In this document: positions 5,360-24,297 of the stretch, piece after piece
Layout of the letters: each line of letters opens with the position of its first letter
How positions within the stretch are numbered: the first letter of the stretch is position 1
Assembly: GCA_005883415.1 (NCBI GenBank)
Contig: VAWT01000158.1
Coordinates: 1 to 33,117 of the forward strand
Direction: 5' to 3'
DNA length: 33,117 bases
Origin: Actinomycetota bacterium
GTDB taxonomy: Bacteria > Actinomycetota > Thermoleophilia > Solirubrobacterales > Solirubrobacteraceae
Made by a program: the position numbers and the translations under genes
Notes under the pieces: model-generated
What the model was told of the DNA's origin: nothing
Seen by the model: the letters and a program-made list of their open reading frames with translations, nothing else
Database searches by the model: none

Positions 5360-5584
5360 TCAGGTCCCGAATCCGACCCGATGCTCTTCGTGGTCGACGA
5401 TCACGTACACGACCTTGGTCAAGTCGACAGCCACGGTCCCCGCCTCGGCGGTCAGGTCGTGCCATCCGTCGGAGCCGAGGGCGTTGCGAAGCTTCGTCAA
5501 CTCGGCGGGCTCCACACGCGCCGCGAGCGTCTGGCCCCCTAGGAACCCGATGCTGATCTTGTGTGGCTTCTCGTTGGCCGCCAT
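5360..5584 (-). CDS. Small conserved protein, DUF3107-like
   Basis: 74 aa; KISIGFLGGQTLAARVEPAELTKLRNAL...VAVDLTKVVYVIVDHEEHRVGFGT, ending in the RVGFG-type tail of this family. Confidence 0.55.
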   Translation of the reverse strand: MAANEKPHKISIGFLGGQTLAARVEPAELTKLRNALGSDGWHDLTAEAGTVAVDLTKVVYVIVDHEEHRVGFGT

Positions 5585-5994
5585 CAGTGACCGTTCGCCG
5601 GTTGCACGAGCTCTGTGAGCACGCCGCCGGTCGAGGTGGGGTGCAGGAATGCCACCCGCGAGCCGCGGATCCCTATCCGTGGCTGCTCATCGATCAGCCG
5701 CAGCCCGGCGCTGGCCAGCCTCTCGAGCGTCTGCTGCACGTCTCCGACGCGGTAGGCCACATGGTGAAGCCCCGTCCCCCGGCGCGAGATGAATTTCCCC
5801 ACGGCGGTCTCTGGTCCCAGCGGCTGGAGCAGTTCTACGTGCCCGGCTCCGACATCGAGCAGTGCCGCATCGACGCCCTGTTCGGTGACCTTCTCCCGGT
5901 GGATCAGCGGCATCCCGAACGTGTCACGGTACAGGGCCAGCGCGGCCTCGATGTCCTCGACGGCCACCCCAACGTGGTCGATTACCTCAAGCAT
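5584..5994 (-). CDS. Methylmalonyl-CoA epimerase-like VOC protein
   Basis: MLEVIDHVGVAVEDIEAALALYRDTFGMPLIHRE...GTGLHHVAYRVGDVQQTLERLASAGLRLIDEQPRIGIRGSRVAFLHPTSTGGVLTELVQ. Confidence 0.88.
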   Translation of the reverse strand: MLEVIDHVGVAVEDIEAALALYRDTFGMPLIHREKVTEQGVDAALLDVGAGHVELLQPLGPETAVGKFISRRGTGLHHVAYRVGDVQQTLERLASAGLRLIDEQPRIGIRGSRVAFLHPTSTGGVLTELVQPANGH

Positions 5995-6016: not shown

Positions 6017-6956
6017 TCATTCCACCCGCTCCATCCTGGGGTTGGGCGAGTAGGTCCGTCCCACCTTGGCGCATGGGCGGCCCTCGAGCAGCACGACATC
6101 GGCGGTGAAGTCGTTCTGGCCCCGGATCAGCGAGGACCCGACCCCGTACGCATCGACCGGTACGGCGAGGGCCTCAAATTCATTGATGCGCGTTGCGTTG
6201 AAGCCTCCGCTGGCCACAATTCTCACATCCTGAAAGCCAGCCTGATCGAGGGCGCGTCGCACCTTCTCGACCAGCTGGGGGTTGACGCCGACGGGGGTGA
6301 AGCTGCCCATCTCATCGATCAGTGAGCGGTCGACGAGCTGCTCGGAGGTGTCCAGCCGCACCCCCCACAGCTTCGGACCGAGGGCCTCCGCCACCGCCAG
6401 CGCGGTCTTGATCGAGTCGTTCTCGAAGTCCACCAAGACGGTGATGTTCATCTCCCCGTGGAAGCGGTCGGCGAACAGGGCCGCCGCTTTGACCGTGTCG
6501 CCGCCGTAGGCCGCGATCAGTCCGTGGGGCACCGTGCCGATCCCTCGGCCGCCCCACCATGACGCCTGGGCGTCGGTTGAGACGCCGATCGCGCCGGCCA
6601 CGTGGGCGCTCCAGCCGTCGCCGGTCTGCACCAACCAGTGGTCGTGACGGGCGGGGAAGTAGAAGATCTGCTTGCCACGGGCTGCCTCCACCACCTCCGC
6701 CACGTTGCGCATGATCAGCGAGCGGCGGGCCATGCAGCCTAGGTAGACCGTCTCGAGATGGGCGAACAAGCTGTAGTCGCCCTCGATCGTCATCACGGTG
6801 AAAAACCTGCATCGTGACGGTGGGGTGATGGCCCTCCGCCTCGAGCAGGCTCTTGGTGTGGACGAAGTACGCGTCCGAGTAGTAGCCCTCGCGGATGCGC
6901 TCGACCGGAAGACGGAAGATCGCCGGATCCAGTCGGGTAGCAACCTGGGTAGACAT
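6017..6956 (-). pseudogene. Nicotinate phosphoribosyltransferase, disrupted by an internal out-of-frame deletion
   Basis: N-part MSTQVATRLDPAIFRLPVERIREGYYSDAYFVHTKSLLEAEGHHPTVTMQVF (6956-6801) and C-part TVMTIEGDYSLFAHLETVYLGC...PARHDHWLVQTGDGWSAHVAGAIGVSTDAQASWWGGRGIGTVPHGLIAAYGG...VASGGFN...GVGSSLIRGQNDFTADVV (to 6017) are in different frames and lack the segment expected between them. Confidence 0.8.
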
Positions 6957-6992: not shown

Positions 6993-8315
6993 GTGGCTGA
7001 ACGCGATTTTCCACATGCGTCGGTGATCGAAGGCGTGCGCTTCACCGCCCAGGTCGCGCTGCCCAACCTGATCCAAGGGCTGTTCCGGCGACGGAAGCAA
7101 GCCTCGGCTATCGCCAGCCGAACCGGAGCCGATGGACTGGCGGTGGGCTTCCTTGCCGGCGTGAAGCGGAGCTACGGCGAGGGGCCGGTGTGGATCCGGG
7201 TGGCCAAGGACGAGACCCTGCTTCTGCTTGGCCGCACGCCGATCAGGCGCGCGCTCGAGGGGTCGCCGGAGCCATTCGCCGCGGATCCCGAGCCGAAAAA
7301 ATCGGCCATGTCGCACTTCCAGCCCCACGCGCTCACGATCTCTCGAGACGGCGACTGGGAGGATCGGCGCAAGTTCACAGAGGCCGTGCTGGACGCTGGC
7401 ATGTCCTCGCTTGCCGACCGGTTCGCCGCGGTCTGCGTCGAGGAGTCGGCTCGCTTGGAGGAGGAGCTTGACTGGGACACATGGAACCGCGCCGTTCGCC
7501 GCGTCACTCGGCGGATCATTCTCGGCGACGGGGCAGCCGACGACGATTCGATCTCCGAGATGCTCGGAGAGCTGATGGACAAGTCAAATCCCCCGGGCGG
7601 GGGAGACGAGGAGCTCTACGAGCGTTATGTCGCCGCGCTTCAGCGCTACGTGGACGAGGCGGAGCCAGGCAGCCTGGTGAGCCTGTTCGAACGCGCGCCA
7701 GTGACCGAGCGCACCGAGCCTGTCGGGCAGGTCACCCACTGGCTGTTCGCGCTCGGGGATACGTTGGCCATCAACGCGTTGCGCTGCCTGGCGTTGCTCG
7801 CCGCGTTCGACGAGCAGCACAAGCGCGTCTCGGAGGAGGTCGCGAACGCGGATCTCAACACCGAATCGGGCGTGGATTCGCTGAAGGTCCTCGAGGCCTG
7901 CCTTCAGGAAGCGATGCGGCTGTGGCCGACGACGGCGATGCTGTCGCGCGAGGCCGTGCGTGATGTCGACTGGGACGGGATCACGATTCCGGCCGGCAAG
8001 CAGGTCCTGATCGTCAACACCTTCAACCACCGTGATGACGACGCAGTGCCGTTCGCCGATCGCTTTGATCCCGACGCGTGGCTGTCGGGCGACGCCGCCG
8101 ATGACTGGATCTTCAACCACTTCAGTCATGGGCCGCAGGGCTGTCCCGGCACGGCGCTGGCGCTGTTCGTGGGCAAGGCGATGCTGGCATCTCTGCTGGG
8201 TCCGGGCTCCGAGGTCCGCCTGCTCTCGCCGCGGCTCGACCCGACCAAGCCACTTCCGCACACGCTCGATTTCTTCGGCCTGAAGCTCTCGCTCGGCGGC
8301 TCGTCGGCGGGCTAG
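6993..8315 (+). CDS. Cytochrome P450 family protein (divergent)
   Basis: Heme-Cys motif FSHGPQGCPGTALA, K-helix EAMR, I-helix-like FALGDTLAINALR, HFQPHALTISRDGDWEDRRKF. Confidence 0.85.
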   Translation: MAERDFPHASVIEGVRFTAQVALPNLIQGLFRRRKQASAIASRTGADGLAVGFLAGVKRSYGEGPVWIRVAKDETLLLLGRTPIRRALEGSPEPFAADPEPKKSAMSHFQPHALTISRDGDWEDRRKFTEAVLDAGMSSLADRFAAVCVEESARLEEELDWDTWNRAVRRVTRRIILGDGAADDDSISEMLGELMDKSNPPGGGDEELYERYVAALQRYVDEAEPGSLVSLFERAPVTERTEPVGQVTHWLFALGDTLAINALRCLALLAAFDEQHKRVSEEVANADLNTESGVDSLKVLEACLQEAMRLWPTTAMLSREAVRDVDWDGITIPAGKQVLIVNTFNHRDDDAVPFADRFDPDAWLSGDAADDWIFNHFSHGPQGCPGTALALFVGKAMLASLLGPGSEVRLLSPRLDPTKPLPHTLDFFGLKLSLGGSSAG

Positions 8316-11459: not shown

Positions 11460-12767
11460 ATGCAGCGGCTGTTCGGTGACGACGCACCGTCGCGCGCTGA
11501 CGCGGTGGCACCCTCCGGTGCACCGCTTGCCACCCGCCTGCGGCCCCGAACGTTGGACGAGTTCGTTGGCCAGGATCGGCTGCTCCAACCGGGCTCGGCC
11601 CTTCGCACCGCGATCGAAGAGGGTCGGCCCCACTCGATGATCCTCCACGGCCCTCCAGGGAGCGGGAAAACCACACTGGCCCGACTGATAGCGGAGTCCT
11701 CGAGCGCAGCGTTCGAGGAGCAGAGCGCGGTGCAGGCGGGCCGGGCGGAGGTCAGGGCGGTGATCGAGCGCGCGCGCGAGCGCCTGAGCACGAGCGGCAC
11801 AAGGACCATCTTCTTCCTCGACGAGATTCACCGGTTCAACAAGGCGCAGCAGGACGCCCTGCTCCCGGCGGTCGAGGACGGGCTGATCACGCTCATCGGG
11901 GCGACCACCGAGAATCCGTACTTCGAGGTCAACTCCGCCCTGTTGTCCCGCACCCAGGTGTATGTGCTCGAGCAACTGAGCTCGGCCCAGATCCGCACGC
12001 TGCTCGACCGGGCCGTCCACCGAGGCGAGTGCGGGACGCGGACGGTCGAGCCCGAGGCGCTCGAGTTCCTCGCCGACCGTTCGGGTGGCGACGCTCGGAC
12101 GGCGCTCAACGCGCTGGAACTGGCCTGTCAGACGGCTGGGGAGGGGCCAGGGTCCGACTCTGTGACGCTGGCCTACGCCGAGGACGCGCTCCAGCGCCGC
12201 GCGCTGCTATACGACCGCCAGGCCGACTACCACTACGACACGATCTCGGCTTGGATCAAGGCCACCCGAGGCTCGGACCCCGACGCATCGCTCTACTACC
12301 TAGCGTTGATGCTCGAGGGCGGAGAGGACCCGCGCTTCATCGTCCGCCGGATGGTCGTCCTTGCCTCGGAGGACATCGGCAACGCCGACCCCCAGGCGTT
12401 GACGGTCGCGACCGCGGCGGCGCAGGCGGTCGAGCACGTGGGGTTGCCGGAGGCCCAGTTTGCGCTGGCGCAGGCAGCCATCTACTTGTCGCTGGCGCCC
12501 AAGTCCGATGCCACCAAGCGGGCGATAGTCGCGGCCAGGGAGCTGATCAGCGAGCGGGGGGCGGACCTGCCGCCGAGCTATCTGCGATCTTCCACGCGCA
12601 AGCGCGGGGATTACGACAATCCGCATAAGCGTCCCGGTCACGTCTCGCCGCAGGAGCTGATGCCCGAGTCCGCGATCGGGCGCCGGCTCTACGAACCTGA
12701 CGAAGCGGAGGCGCGGCTGCGGGAACACCTGGAGGAGATCCGCCGGGCGCGCGGAAGGGGCAGCTGA
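11460..12767 (+). CDS. rarA: Replication-associated recombination protein RarA (MgsA) AAA+ ATPase
   Basis: MQRLFGDD...[21 protein letters not shown]...[16 protein letters not shown]...[50 protein letters not shown] track start at 10839 is an upstream read-through. Confidence 0.95.
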
Positions 12768-19756: not shown

Positions 19757-21240
19757 CGGTCTACCTCGTCGGTGCCGGACCCGGCGATCCCGTCCTGCTC
19801 ACGACCAGGGCGCTTCAGCTGATCGCTGCCGCGGACGTGATCGTGTACGACCGCCTGATCCCAGCTGAGGCCCTGGCGGGGGCGAGGGCCGGCGCCGAGC
19901 TCATCTACGCCGGCAAGCAGGGCGGCGGGGTATCGGCCGACCAGGACGAGATCGAGCGGCTGCTGGTGGATTTTGGTTCTGCCGGGGGCACTGTCGTTCG
20001 CCTGAAGGGCGGTGACCCGTTCGTGTTCGGCCGCGGCGGCGAGGAGGCCGAAGCGCTAGCCGAGGCCGGGGTCCCGTTCGAGATCGTGCCGGGCGTGACG
20101 GCTGGCGTGGCCGCTCCCGCCTACGCCGGGATACCCGTTACCCATCGGGACGCGGCCAGCGCGGTCGCGTTTGTGACCGGTCACGAGGATCCGTCGAAGC
20201 CCGAGCCCGCCGTCGATTGGGAGGCGCTGGCGGTGTTCCCCGGCACGTTGGTGGTCTACATGGGGATTCGGCGGCTGGACGCGATCACCGAAAGGCTGAT
20301 CGAGGCCGGGCGCTCGCCACGGGAGCCGGCTGCGGTGATCGAGCGTGGGACGCTGCCTGACCAGCGCGTCATCGAGGGGACGCTAGAGACGATCGCCGCC
20401 ACCGCGGCATCTGAGGGAGTCAGGGCGCCGGCGGTCGCCGTGTTCGGGCAGGTCTCGGCCTCCCGGGAACGGCTGAGATGGTTTGAGAACCGGCCGTTGG
20501 CCGGCATCCGGGTGGCCGTCACCCGAGCACGGGCCCAGGCCAGTGAGCTTGCAGCGCGGCTTCGAGCGCTTGGTGGCGCCGTTGTGGAGGTTCCGGCGAT
20601 CAGGGTCGTGCCTCTGGCGGGTCCAGCGCCTAGGCTTGCGGGCTACGACTTGATCTGTCTGACCAGCCCCAACGGGGCCCGGGTGCTCTTCGACCGTCTG
20701 CGGGATGCCGGGCTCGACGCCCGCGCACTGGCCGGCGCCAGGGTGGCGGCGATCGGGCCCGGTACAGCCGCCGCGCTCGAGCGTCACGGGATAACGGCCG
20801 ACATCGTGCCCGACCGGTTTGTCGCCGAGGGACTGATCGAAGCGCTGGCGGACGTACCAGTGAGGCGGGCCCTCATCGCGCGCGCGGCGGACGCGCGTGA
20901 CGTGCTCCCTGCGGCCCTTCGCCAGAGGGGGGCGGAGGTCGACGTCATGCCTCTCTATGAGACGGTTCCCGAACCGCTCGATCAGACCCATCTGGAGCAG
21001 GCCGAGCGCGCTGACTACGTGACCTTCACGTCCTCCTCCACGGTTCGGTTCTTCCTGTCCGCCGCCGGCGAAAGGCTCGGTTCGGGGGCGCGGCTGATCA
21101 GCATCGGTCCGGTCACGAGCGCCGCGCTCAGAGAGCGGGGGCTAGAGCCCCACGTCGAGGCAGGGAGGCACGACATCGAGGGGCTGGTTGAGGCGCTCGT
21201 GCGCGACGCGGAAGAGCGGCGAGGTGCGCTGTGGGCGTGA
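19753..21240 (+). CDS. Uroporphyrinogen-III C-methyltransferase / uroporphyrinogen-III synthase fusion (CobA-HemD)
   Basis: VYLVGAGPGDPVLLTTRALQLIAAADVIVYDRL, VRLKGGDPFVFGRGGEEAEAL, followed by the HemD domain VAVTRARAQASELAARLRALGGAVVEVPAI...YVTFTSSSTVRFF. Confidence 0.95.
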   Translation: MTVYLVGAGPGDPVLLTTRALQLIAAADVIVYDRLIPAEALAGARAGAELIYAGKQGGGVSADQDEIERLLVDFGSAGGTVVRLKGGDPFVFGRGGEEAEALAEAGVPFEIVPGVTAGVAAPAYAGIPVTHRDAASAVAFVTGHEDPSKPEPAVDWEALAVFPGTLVVYMGIRRLDAITERLIEAGRSPREPAAVIERGTLPDQRVIEGTLETIAATAASEGVRAPAVAVFGQVSASRERLRWFENRPLAGIRVAVTRARAQASELAARLRALGGAVVEVPAIRVVPLAGPAPRLAGYDLICLTSPNGARVLFDRLRDAGLDARALAGARVAAIGPGTAAALERHGITADIVPDRFVAEGLIEALADVPVRRALIARAADARDVLPAALRQRGAEVDVMPLYETVPEPLDQTHLEQAERADYVTFTSSSTVRFFLSAAGERLGSGARLISIGPVTSAALRERGLEPHVEAGRHDIEGLVEALVRDAEERRGALWA

Positions 21241-21926
21241 GCGAGGCCATCCCGACCCAGCCCGCATTTCTGTTCGACCTGGACGGGACGCTGGTGGACA
21301 GCGTCTACCAGCACGTCGTGGCCTGGCGGGAGGCGCTCGAGGCCGTCGGCATCAACCTCCCGGTCTGGAAGATTCACCGCCGGATCGGTATGAGCGGGGG
21401 ACTATTTGTCAACGCCCTGGCGCGGGAGCTCGATACGGAGCTCGACCGCGAGATCCTGGACAGGCTCCCGACGCTTCATACCGACGCCTACATCCGCCAC
21501 TTCCACAGCGTGCGACCGCTGCCGGGAGCCGTTGAGCTTCTGGAGACTCTGACCGAGCACCGTGTGCCCTGGGCAATTGCCACCAGTGGTGTCGAGCGGT
21601 CCGCCAAGCTCGCACTGGAGTTACTGGAGCTGGACCCCCAGACGCCGGTCGTGACGCGCGACCAGGTGCGCTATGCCAAGCCGGACCCCGACCTGTTCCT
21701 GACGGCCGCCGAGCGCCTCGGGGTCGGCATCCGCGAGAGCCTCGTCGTCGGCGACAGCGTGTGGGACCTGCTGGCGGCCAGGAGGGCGAGCGCCCTGGGG
21801 ATCGGCGTGCTCTCGGGGGGCTACGGCCGCGAGGAGCTCATCTACTCTGGCGCCTTCCGCGTCTACGAGGATCCCCACGACCTTCTCGCCCACATCGATG
21901 AGGTAGGAGTACGGCGTCCTCTCTGA
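21231..21926 (+). CDS. HAD-superfamily hydrolase (phosphoglycolate phosphatase-like)
   Basis: AFLFDLDGTLVDSVYQHVVAWREALE, WAIATSGVERSAKLALELLEL, KPDPDLFLTAAERLGV, VVGDSVWDLLAARRAS. Confidence 0.93.
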   Translation: MGVSEAIPTQPAFLFDLDGTLVDSVYQHVVAWREALEAVGINLPVWKIHRRIGMSGGLFVNALARELDTELDREILDRLPTLHTDAYIRHFHSVRPLPGAVELLETLTEHRVPWAIATSGVERSAKLALELLELDPQTPVVTRDQVRYAKPDPDLFLTAAERLGVGIRESLVVGDSVWDLLAARRASALGIGVLSGGYGREELIYSGAFRVYEDPHDLLAHIDEVGVRRPL

Positions 21927-21971
21927 CGCCCCTGGCACGGCGTCCTCTCCGCCCCCCGGCGGCGCCCCGCG

Positions 21972-22613
21972 CTACTCCATCAGCCCTCGCCGCATCGCCT
22001 CGGCGACGGCGGCCGCCCGGTCGTGGACCCCGAGCTTATCGAGCAGGCTCTTGACGTAGGTCTTGACCGTCGAGGAGCTGATGAACAGGCGCTCTCCGAT
22101 CTCGGGATTCGACAGCCCCTCGGCGATCAGCAAGAGCACCTGGGACTCGCGCTCCGAGAGCAGCGATACCGCTGATCGATCGCGTTCGCGCAACTCTCGC
22201 ACCAAGCCGGAGTGGACCTCGGGGGCGAGCACCGTCTCCCCGCGCGCTACTGCGACGATCGCATCACAGATCTGATCGAGCGTCGAGGCCTTCGTCAAGA
22301 AGGCGGCCGCGCCCAGCTGCACCGCGTCGTACACGAGCTCCCGCGAGCTGTCCGCAGAGAGCATCACCACGGAGGTCTCGATTCGGTCGCGCTGGATAGC
22401 GCGGACGACGTCCAGACCTTCGAGCTGCGGCAACCGCATGTCTAGGACCGCGACCCCCGGCGACAGCGACCGGATGTCGTCCAGCGCGCGCCGCCCGTCG
22501 CCGCCCATACCGACCAGCTCGAGCTCCGGCCGCGAGGACGCTGCGCGCGCGACAGCTTCCCGAAAGACCGGATGGTCATCGGCGACGTAGACCGTGATTT
22601 TCTGTCCTGCCAT
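21972..22613 (-). CDS. NarL/LuxR-family response regulator
   Basis: KITVYVADDHPVFREAVARAA, VAVLDMRLPQLEGLDVV (phospho-Asp), LSERESQVLLLIAEGLSNPEIGERLFISSSTVKTYVKSLLDKLGVHDRAAAV HTH. Confidence 0.95.
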   Translation of the reverse strand: MAGQKITVYVADDHPVFREAVARAASSRPELELVGMGGDGRRALDDIRSLSPGVAVLDMRLPQLEGLDVVRAIQRDRIETSVVMLSADSSRELVYDAVQLGAAAFLTKASTLDQICDAIVAVARGETVLAPEVHSGLVRELRERDRSAVSLLSERESQVLLLIAEGLSNPEIGERLFISSSTVKTYVKSLLDKLGVHDRAAAVAEAMRRGLME

Positions 22614-22695
22614 TCGGGGCTAGCCGAAGAGTCTAATCCTGACTCCCCCAGATGGGTAGTAAGCCCCTCCCCCGATCGGGTTAGCCCCACTACGG

Positions 22696-22737
22696 CCGGC
22701 CGGTCGGGCGACTTTGACCTTTCAACTGACCGGCCGG
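22696..22737. repeat. Inverted repeat CCGGCCGGTC ... GACCGGCCGG upstream of the response regulator
   Basis: Perfect 10-bp arms at 22696-22705 and 22728-22737 with a 22-nt loop. Confidence 0.8.
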
Positions 22738-22821
22738 GGGATGGTCAGGATGCCGCTCCTGAGGGAGAATTCCTGCCAAGTCATTTCCTGCAGGCCTGAC
22801 CGACAATGGGGGCCAGGACAG

Positions 22822-22898
22822 CGAGCAGGCGGCCGCCCGGGGCAGCGGCCGCCCCTCGACAGAACTTCGAGCAGGCGGCCGCCCGGGGCAGCGGCCGC
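22822..22898. repeat. Two direct copies of a 31-bp repeat, each with two NotI palindromes (GCGGCCGC)
   Basis: CGAGCAGGCGGCCGCCCGGGGCAGCGGCCGC at 22822-22852 and 22868-22898 (46-nt period); GCGGCCGC at 22829, 22845, 22875 and 22891. Confidence 0.92.
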
Positions 22899-23069
22899 TC
22901 TCGAGGAACAGCGACCAGCTGTTAGCGGTGGCGCTGCGAGATCCGGGGCATACCTCTCGCCGCACCACCGCGACAGCTGTCTGCGGCAACGTCAGACGGA
23001 CGGCCGGACCCCGCGGAGCCCGCCGTCAAGGCCTTGCCGCCCTCGCTGGAATCGGGTAGAACAGGACAT

Positions 23070-23417
23070 GTGCACGGGTTCGTGCTCGATGCCGACCGGC
23101 TAGCCCAGCTGCGCGTCTTCAGCGACGCCGAGCGCCACGAGATCGCGAAAGGGGCCGCGACCGCCATCACCGCTCAGCTCGACCGACTGGAGCGTGCGCT
23201 CTCAGCTTCCGACCTGGGCACGGCCGCCGATGCTGCACATCGGGCACGCAACGAGACGCTCTTGGTTGGGGCCCGTCAGCTCACAACCGCATTCGCCGAT
23301 TTCGAGCGGGCGGCTCGCGGCGGCGAGCACGAGCTGGCGCGCGAGGCCGCACAGCAGGTGAAGGCCATCTGGCCCGCGGCACAAGCCGCCATCGACCAGA
23401 TTGCAGCCGGAGGCTGA
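23070..23417 (+). CDS. Hpt-like histidine phosphotransfer protein (orphan)
   Basis: AAHRARNETLLVGARQLTTAFADFERAARGGEHELA fits the Hpt helix pattern (AH-x-x-(K/R)...GA...L...LE); about 115 aa, helical; GTG start at 23070 assumed. Confidence 0.6.
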   Translation: MHGFVLDADRLAQLRVFSDAERHEIAKGAATAITAQLDRLERALSASDLGTAADAAHRARNETLLVGARQLTTAFADFERAARGGEHELAREAAQQVKAIWPAAQAAIDQIAAGG

Positions 23418-23437
23418 TCACAGTTCGAGGCGCTTAG

Positions 23438-23466
23438 CCGTCGACGAGCTCGAGCAGCGTCGACGG
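23438..23466 (+). terminator. Stem-loop downstream of the Hpt-like gene
   Basis: Perfect arms CCGTCGAC (23438-23445) / GTCGACGG (23459-23466), 13-nt loop; no U-tract. Confidence 0.35.
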
Positions 23467-23493
23467 CGGTGATCGTAATAGCCTGGCGGCCCG

Positions 23494-24297
23494 TTGAGCG
23501 ACGCGCCGGTGATCACGTTCCTGTCCGACTACGGCCTCGCCGACGGCTTCGCCGGCGTCTGCCACGGCGTGATAGCCACCATTTGCCCGCGGGCGCGGGT
23601 GATCGACATCACGCACGGCGTGCCGCGCCACGACATCCGTGCCGGGGCGCTGATCCTCCGTACCGCGCTTCCCTACGCCCCGGTCGGTGTGCACCTGGCG
23701 GTGGTGGACCCGGACGTCGGCGCCGAACGTCGCGCGGTCGCCCTGCGGCTTACCGACGGGCGCCTACTGGTCGGCCCCGACAACGGCCTGCTGTGGCTCG
23801 CCGCCCAGGACGGGGGCGGCGTCAGCGAGGCGGTCGAGGTCGGAAGCTCCCCTTGGCGACTCGAGCCGGTTTCGGCGACCTTCCACGGCCGCGACATCTT
23901 CGCTCCGGTGGCGGCGCGGCTTGCGGCGGGCGAGGAACTGGCCGACGCGGGACCGCCGTACGACGCGGCTGGGCTGGCCCGTCTCGATCTGCCGACCTCG
24001 CGCCTCGAGGACGGGGTGCTGGTCGCGCACGCCGTGTATGTGGACAGATTCGGCAACATCCAGCTGGACGCCACTCACGACGACCTGTACAACGCCGGGC
24101 TAAGGCTCGGCCACGGGGTGCTGGTCGGCGCGCACGCCGCCCGCTACCTGCGCACGTTCGCGGACGCTCGAGCCGGTGAGCTGCTCGTCTACGAGGACTC
24201 TTCCCAGATGCTCGCGGTGGCCATAAGTCAGGGGAACGCGGCGGAGCGCCTCGTCGTCGTGGCGGGCGACGAGGTGTGGATCAGAGCGCAGCGGTGA
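23494..24297 (+). CDS. S-adenosyl-L-methionine hydrolase (adenosine-forming), DUF62 family
   Basis: ITFLSDYGLADGFAGVCHGVI, VIDITHGVPRHDIRAGALIL, VHLAVVDPDVG, LLVGPDNGLL, ATFHGRDIFAPVAA, VDRFGNIQL. Confidence 0.95.
   Translation: MSDAPVITFLSDYGLADGFAGVCHGVIATICPRARVIDITHGVPRHDIRAGALILRTALPYAPVGVHLAVVDPDVGAERRAVALRLTDGRLLVGPDNGLLWLAAQDGGGVSEAVEVGSSPWRLEPVSATFHGRDIFAPVAARLAAGEELADAGPPYDAAGLARLDLPTSRLEDGVLVAHAVYVDRFGNIQLDATHDDLYNAGLRLGHGVLVGAHAARYLRTFADARAGELLVYEDSSQMLAVAISQGNAAERLVVVAGDEVWIRAQR

What the first reader, a model, noticed from the sequence alone, without database searches (positions are those of the whole stretch)
6780..6830. Nicotinate phosphoribosyltransferase carries an out-of-frame internal deletion
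On the minus strand the first 52 codons (MSTQVATRLDPAIFRLPVERIREGYYSDAYFVHTKSLLEAEGHHPTVTMQVF) run straight into ATGCAGGTTTTTCACCGTGATGACGATC, where the next conserved block (TVMTIEGDYSLFAHLETVYLG) is in a different frame. In this family (for example the archaeal Thermoplasma-type NAPRTase as I recall it) roughly 40-50 residues lie between these blocks, so this looks like a deletion plus frameshift rather than a simple homopolymer slip. Either the NAD salvage gene is dead or the assembly has lost about 130-140 bp. The 5-base T/A run at the junction (6801-6805) is a plausible breakpoint.
Basis: partly seen in the sequence, partly recalled or inferred. Interest (0 to 1): 0.6.

Follow-up and report, generated by a model that had tools for sequence, protein, structure and literature searches.

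The report
Assembly gap breaks an ordinary gene
A normal vitamin-B3 salvage gene of an uncultured soil actinobacterium looks broken most likely only because the draft genome lost about 150 letters at a bad join, a fault that recurs in several other, partly essential, genes of the same draft.

Summary
On the minus strand, 6956-6017 encodes a nicotinate phosphoribosyltransferase (NAPRT) that lacks 51-52 codons between QVF and TVMTIEGDY and changes frame at 6799/6800. Relative to other genomes, 152 or 155 bp are absent. All 28 genus genomes were searched. Apart from this one, every match is full-length except one split over two contig ends, and so are 79 of 80 database loci. The rest of the gene shows no decay: dN/dS is like that of intact pairs, and 150 of 151 remaining invariant residues are kept. 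The missing piece is nowhere else in the draft.

The cause is most likely the assembly. In 322 kb of the same MAG, at least five other genes carry the same lesion, 131-170 bp missing with a frame change: ileS (no other copy held), smc, clpP, glmS and a GTP cyclohydrolase. An N-gap written as 27 N stands where a relative has about 180 bp, an error of 153 bp. The same detector found no such deletion in 646 kb of relatives. The likely fault is scaffold joins whose gaps were underestimated by about 150 bp. There is no reason to think NAD salvage is dead, and de novo nadA and nadC are present anyway. Ordinary artefact, low interest.

The parts
6017..6956 (-). NAPRT gene (nicotinate phosphoribosyltransferase, NF005529/PRK07188-like), interrupted
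6801..6956 (-). 5' piece, 52 codons MSTQ...MQVF in frame -2
   Evidence: 79% identical to the closest intact relative
6799..6800 (-). join where 152 or 155 bp (51-52 codons) are missing relative to all intact relatives; reads ...CAGGTTTTTC|ACCGTGATG...
6801..6805 (-). five-T run beside the join; relatives mostly read GTC or GTG then TTC here
6017..6799 (-). 3' piece, 260 codons TVMTIEGDY...ERVE plus stop in frame -3, intact and conserved

Best explanation
The gene in the cell is most likely an intact, ordinary NAPRT (Preiss-Handler NAD salvage). The break is an assembly error: two contigs (or read-overlap paths) were joined at 6799/6800 although about 152-155 bp lie between them. The recurring shortfall of 131-170 bp at other broken genes, and an N-gap too short by 153 bp, suggest that the scaffolding step underestimated gaps by about 150 bp (about one Illumina read length, inferred) and closed the short ones without N. 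Shown: the missing segment, its absence elsewhere in the draft, the lack of decay, and the recurrence of the same lesion in other genes. Inferred: the scaffolding mechanism and the intact state in the living cell.
For: (1) In 322,406 readable bases of the same MAG, tested with proteins from a complete relative (51 gene pairs, 1.6 Mb of its genome), five distinct genes including this one show a deletion-type frame change of 137-170 bp: ileS 140, GTP cyclohydrolase 137, clpP 157, smc 170, NAPRT 155 (junctions read). With queries from other relatives glmS is a sixth, 131 bp. The same detector on 645,955 bases of relatives (288 gene pairs) gave no deletion of this kind; its four hits have shifts of -19 to -58. 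Fisher exact p = 6e-5, or 4e-4 without the NAPRT site; control pairs are not fully independent. (2) IleRS is essential (established knowledge), and the only ileS copy found in this assembly is the broken one; smc is likewise found only in pieces. (3) The one partial N run met in the sample (27 N, C374:7868-7894) lies where a relative's protein needs about 180 bp, an error of 153 bp. (4) The gene shows no decay: dN 0.10-0.13 and dS 0.71-1.03 to relatives, like intact pairs; GC3 0.87; 150 of 151 remaining invariant residues kept. (5) Every other genus genome at least 90% complete and at most 5% contaminated has the gene. (6) 469 contigs, 75.9% complete.
Against: No reads were available, so the missing bases were not seen in the data. 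The segment is not on another contig of the draft, though a merge error need not leave it there. The smc and glmS shifts are measured across variable regions and may include natural length differences. Within the window, no other conserved gene is broken.
Confidence: 0.92

Rival explanations
1. A real, very recent out-of-frame deletion has inactivated NAPRT in the sequenced population. NAD is then made de novo.
For: The lesion is a clean join. nadA and nadC lie together on C383 and nadB-like genes are present, so the loss would be survivable. No second NAPRT copy was found in the draft.
Against: The same size and type of lesion hits ileS, clpP, smc and glmS in the same draft, which cannot all be real losses. 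No decay of the remaining sequence. The gene is kept by 13 of 13 good-quality genus genomes.
Confidence: 0.06
2. A functional split or shortened NAPRT: the 3' piece (260 residues) is translated on its own from the GTG or ATG at the join.
For: GTG and ATG codons sit right after the join, with a weak AGG upstream. The 3' frame is open and conserved.
Against: 17 positions invariant in 28 relatives fall in or at the edge of the missing stretch. In the family the active site lies at the dimer interface and needs residues of the N-terminal domain, such as human Y21 (PMC4442680). No relative has such a form.
Confidence: 0.01
3. The neighbouring cytochrome P450 (6993-8315) is a recent insertion that cut the gene off from its operon and led to its decay.
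For: No relative examined has this P450 between the M20 peptidase and NAPRT.
Against: Several relatives carry another gene (an MFS-type transporter by sequence) in the same slot and the same divergent orientation, beside an intact NAPRT. There is no decay to explain.
Confidence: 0.01

Closest known systems
Nicotinate phosphoribosyltransferase NF005529 (PRK07188) / NF006415; solved relatives 2i14 and 1ytd (Thermoplasma acidophilum)
   Same: The 3' piece matches positions 94-355 of 358 at 6.5e-86 and the 5' piece matches positions 16-54. An intact genus relative aligns with 2i14 and 1ytd.
   Different: 51-52 codons between the two pieces are missing in this draft only.
Frame-breaking scaffolding or gap-closing errors in metagenome-assembled genomes (from general knowledge)
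   Same: Recurrent loss of about one read length at joins, in unrelated genes of one draft.
   Different: No difference is known; reads were not available to prove the mechanism.

Membership tests
Nicotinate phosphoribosyltransferase (type II PRTase) | Profile match over the barrel domain | tested here: met
   NF005529, 6.5e-86, positions 94-355 of 358 (fragment score 288.5, below the whole-protein cut-off of 378)
Nicotinate phosphoribosyltransferase (type II PRTase) | One continuous frame with a complete N-terminal domain | tested here: not met
   51-52 codons missing and frame changed, in the draft as it stands
Pseudogene | Relaxed constraint or further lesions | tested here: not met
   dN/dS as in intact pairs, 150 of 151 remaining invariant residues kept
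Assembly artefact | Same lesion recurs in essential, unrelated genes of the same draft and not in relatives | tested here: met
Assembly artefact | Reads contradict the contig at the join | not testable with these tools
   no reads held

The most novel reading that the evidence does not exclude
A real, very recent loss of NAPRT in this soil lineage, so that it depends on de novo NAD synthesis alone.
Probability: 0.06. Interest if true: 0.15.

Novelty: not a real feature. Interest (0 to 1): 0.07.

Why it matters
It matters only as a warning: this draft genome, held as the genome of its species, loses about 150 bp at joins, which fakes broken genes, including essential ones. Claims of gene loss or pseudogenes from it should be checked against reads.

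Tried and rejected
Second copy or stray piece of NAPRT in the own genome: none. PF04095 is blind to this subfamily: it missed the window's own gene and Pfam gave no match, so proves nothing by itself. Exact junction in other genomes: none, though records of this genome may be left out there. Repeats at the join: only short imperfect repeats, none at the join itself. Operon break by the P450: rejected. A first version of the lesion detector grouped + frames wrongly and found too few sites; corrected.

Full report
What is there. The window is the whole of contig C181 of a 469-contig draft, 2.93 Mb and 75.9% complete. Its named relatives are Solirubrobacterales metagenome bins and Conexibacter. 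On the minus strand, 6956-6801 encodes 52 residues of a nicotinate phosphoribosyltransferase, and 6799-6017 encodes the remaining 260 in another frame.

Size of the loss. In 18 intact relatives that could be measured, 51 (8 genomes) or 52 (10 genomes) residues lie between QVF and the T of TVMTIEGD. The missing DNA is therefore 152 or 155 bp. The join is at 6799/6800, directly 3' of the T run 6801-6805. Relatives mostly read GTC or GTG followed by TTC there. The five T could be two silent changes, or one silent change and one extra T with a whole-codon loss; the sequence alone cannot tell.

Is it unique? All 28 genus genomes were searched. Apart from this one, 24 have matches. All are full length except one that is split over two contig ends, and none has the short form. 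Of 80 loci from another collection, 79 are full length and the other is cut by its contig end. The missing segment is not elsewhere in the draft.

Is the gene decaying? No. dN and dS to six relatives are 0.10-0.13 and 0.71-1.03, much as between intact relatives. GC3 is 0.87. Of 168 positions invariant in 28 relatives, 17 fall in or at the edge of the missing stretch, and of the other 151 one has changed. So either the deletion is extremely recent or it is not in the cell.

Test for an artefact. I took 40 other contigs of the same draft plus the window (322,406 readable bases; eight of the contigs read N throughout) and compared them with proteins from 1.6 Mb of a complete genome of the same genus. 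Among 51 gene pairs, five distinct genes show two pieces in different frames with 137-170 bp missing: NAPRT (155), ileS on C374 (140), a GTP cyclohydrolase (137) and clpP (157) on C110, and smc on C230 (170) (letters at the joins). With proteins of other relatives a sixth appears, glmS on C200 (131). Names are from NCBIfam models. The same detector on 645,955 bases of relatives with 288 gene pairs found no deletion of this kind. Fisher's exact test gives p = 6e-5, or 4e-4 without the NAPRT site; control pairs are partly orthologous to each other, so these are guides only.

Why this decides it. Isoleucyl-tRNA synthetase is indispensable, and the only ileS found in this draft is broken in this way, with model positions 107-150 absent. 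smc is also only in pieces. A cell is not expected to live with all of these lost, so the class of lesion is an assembly error and NAPRT is one instance. In the same sample, a run of 27 N on C374 (7868-7894) stands where a relative's protein needs about 180 bp, an error of 153 bp. This points to a scaffolding step that took gaps to be about 150 bp shorter than they are and closed those that came out near zero. That last step is inference, since no reads or assembly logs are held.

Consequence. NAD salvage in this organism is most likely intact. Even if it were not, nadA and nadC are present side by side on C383 and nadB-like genes exist. In this family the active site is formed at the dimer interface with N-terminal residues of one subunit (PMC4442680), so the fragments as written would not be expected to work.

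A side idea that failed. A cytochrome P450 at 6993-8315 separates NAPRT from the M20 peptidase that lies next to it in some relatives. I considered whether its insertion had silenced the gene. Other relatives carry a transporter-like gene in the same slot and orientation beside an intact NAPRT, so this is a variable slot and not a cause.

Noticed in passing
C374 (L173) 7868-7894 and 12509-12558; C110 (L270) near 2300-2394 and 5042; C230 (L277) near 7110; C200 (L181) near 7200: Other joins of the same draft with 131-170 bp missing, in a TPP-enzyme-like gene (there written as 27 N), ileS, a GTP cyclohydrolase, clpP, smc and glmS.
   Followed up: yes
window 6993-8315: Cytochrome P450 in a variable slot between the M20 peptidase and NAPRT. 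Several relatives have an MFS-type transporter there in the same orientation. The closest P450 found is 50% identical, in another family of the order; the same draft holds a second one at 43%.
   Followed up: partly
window 21241-23500: About 2.2 kb absent from the otherwise collinear contig of the closest relative: an HAD-type phosphatase (21231-21926), a LuxR-type response regulator on the minus strand (21972-22613) and a short unknown stretch.
   Followed up: no
window 22823-22900: Two near-identical copies of about 27 bp (AGCAGGCGGCCGCCCGGGGCAGCGGCCGC) in an apparently non-coding stretch.
   Followed up: no
window 5584-5994: A glyoxalase-fold gene (methylmalonyl-CoA epimerase-like by sequence) follows NAPRT in most close relatives, displaced by about 1.6 kb in a few (for example L086, L103); the reason for the pairing is unclear.
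   Followed up: no
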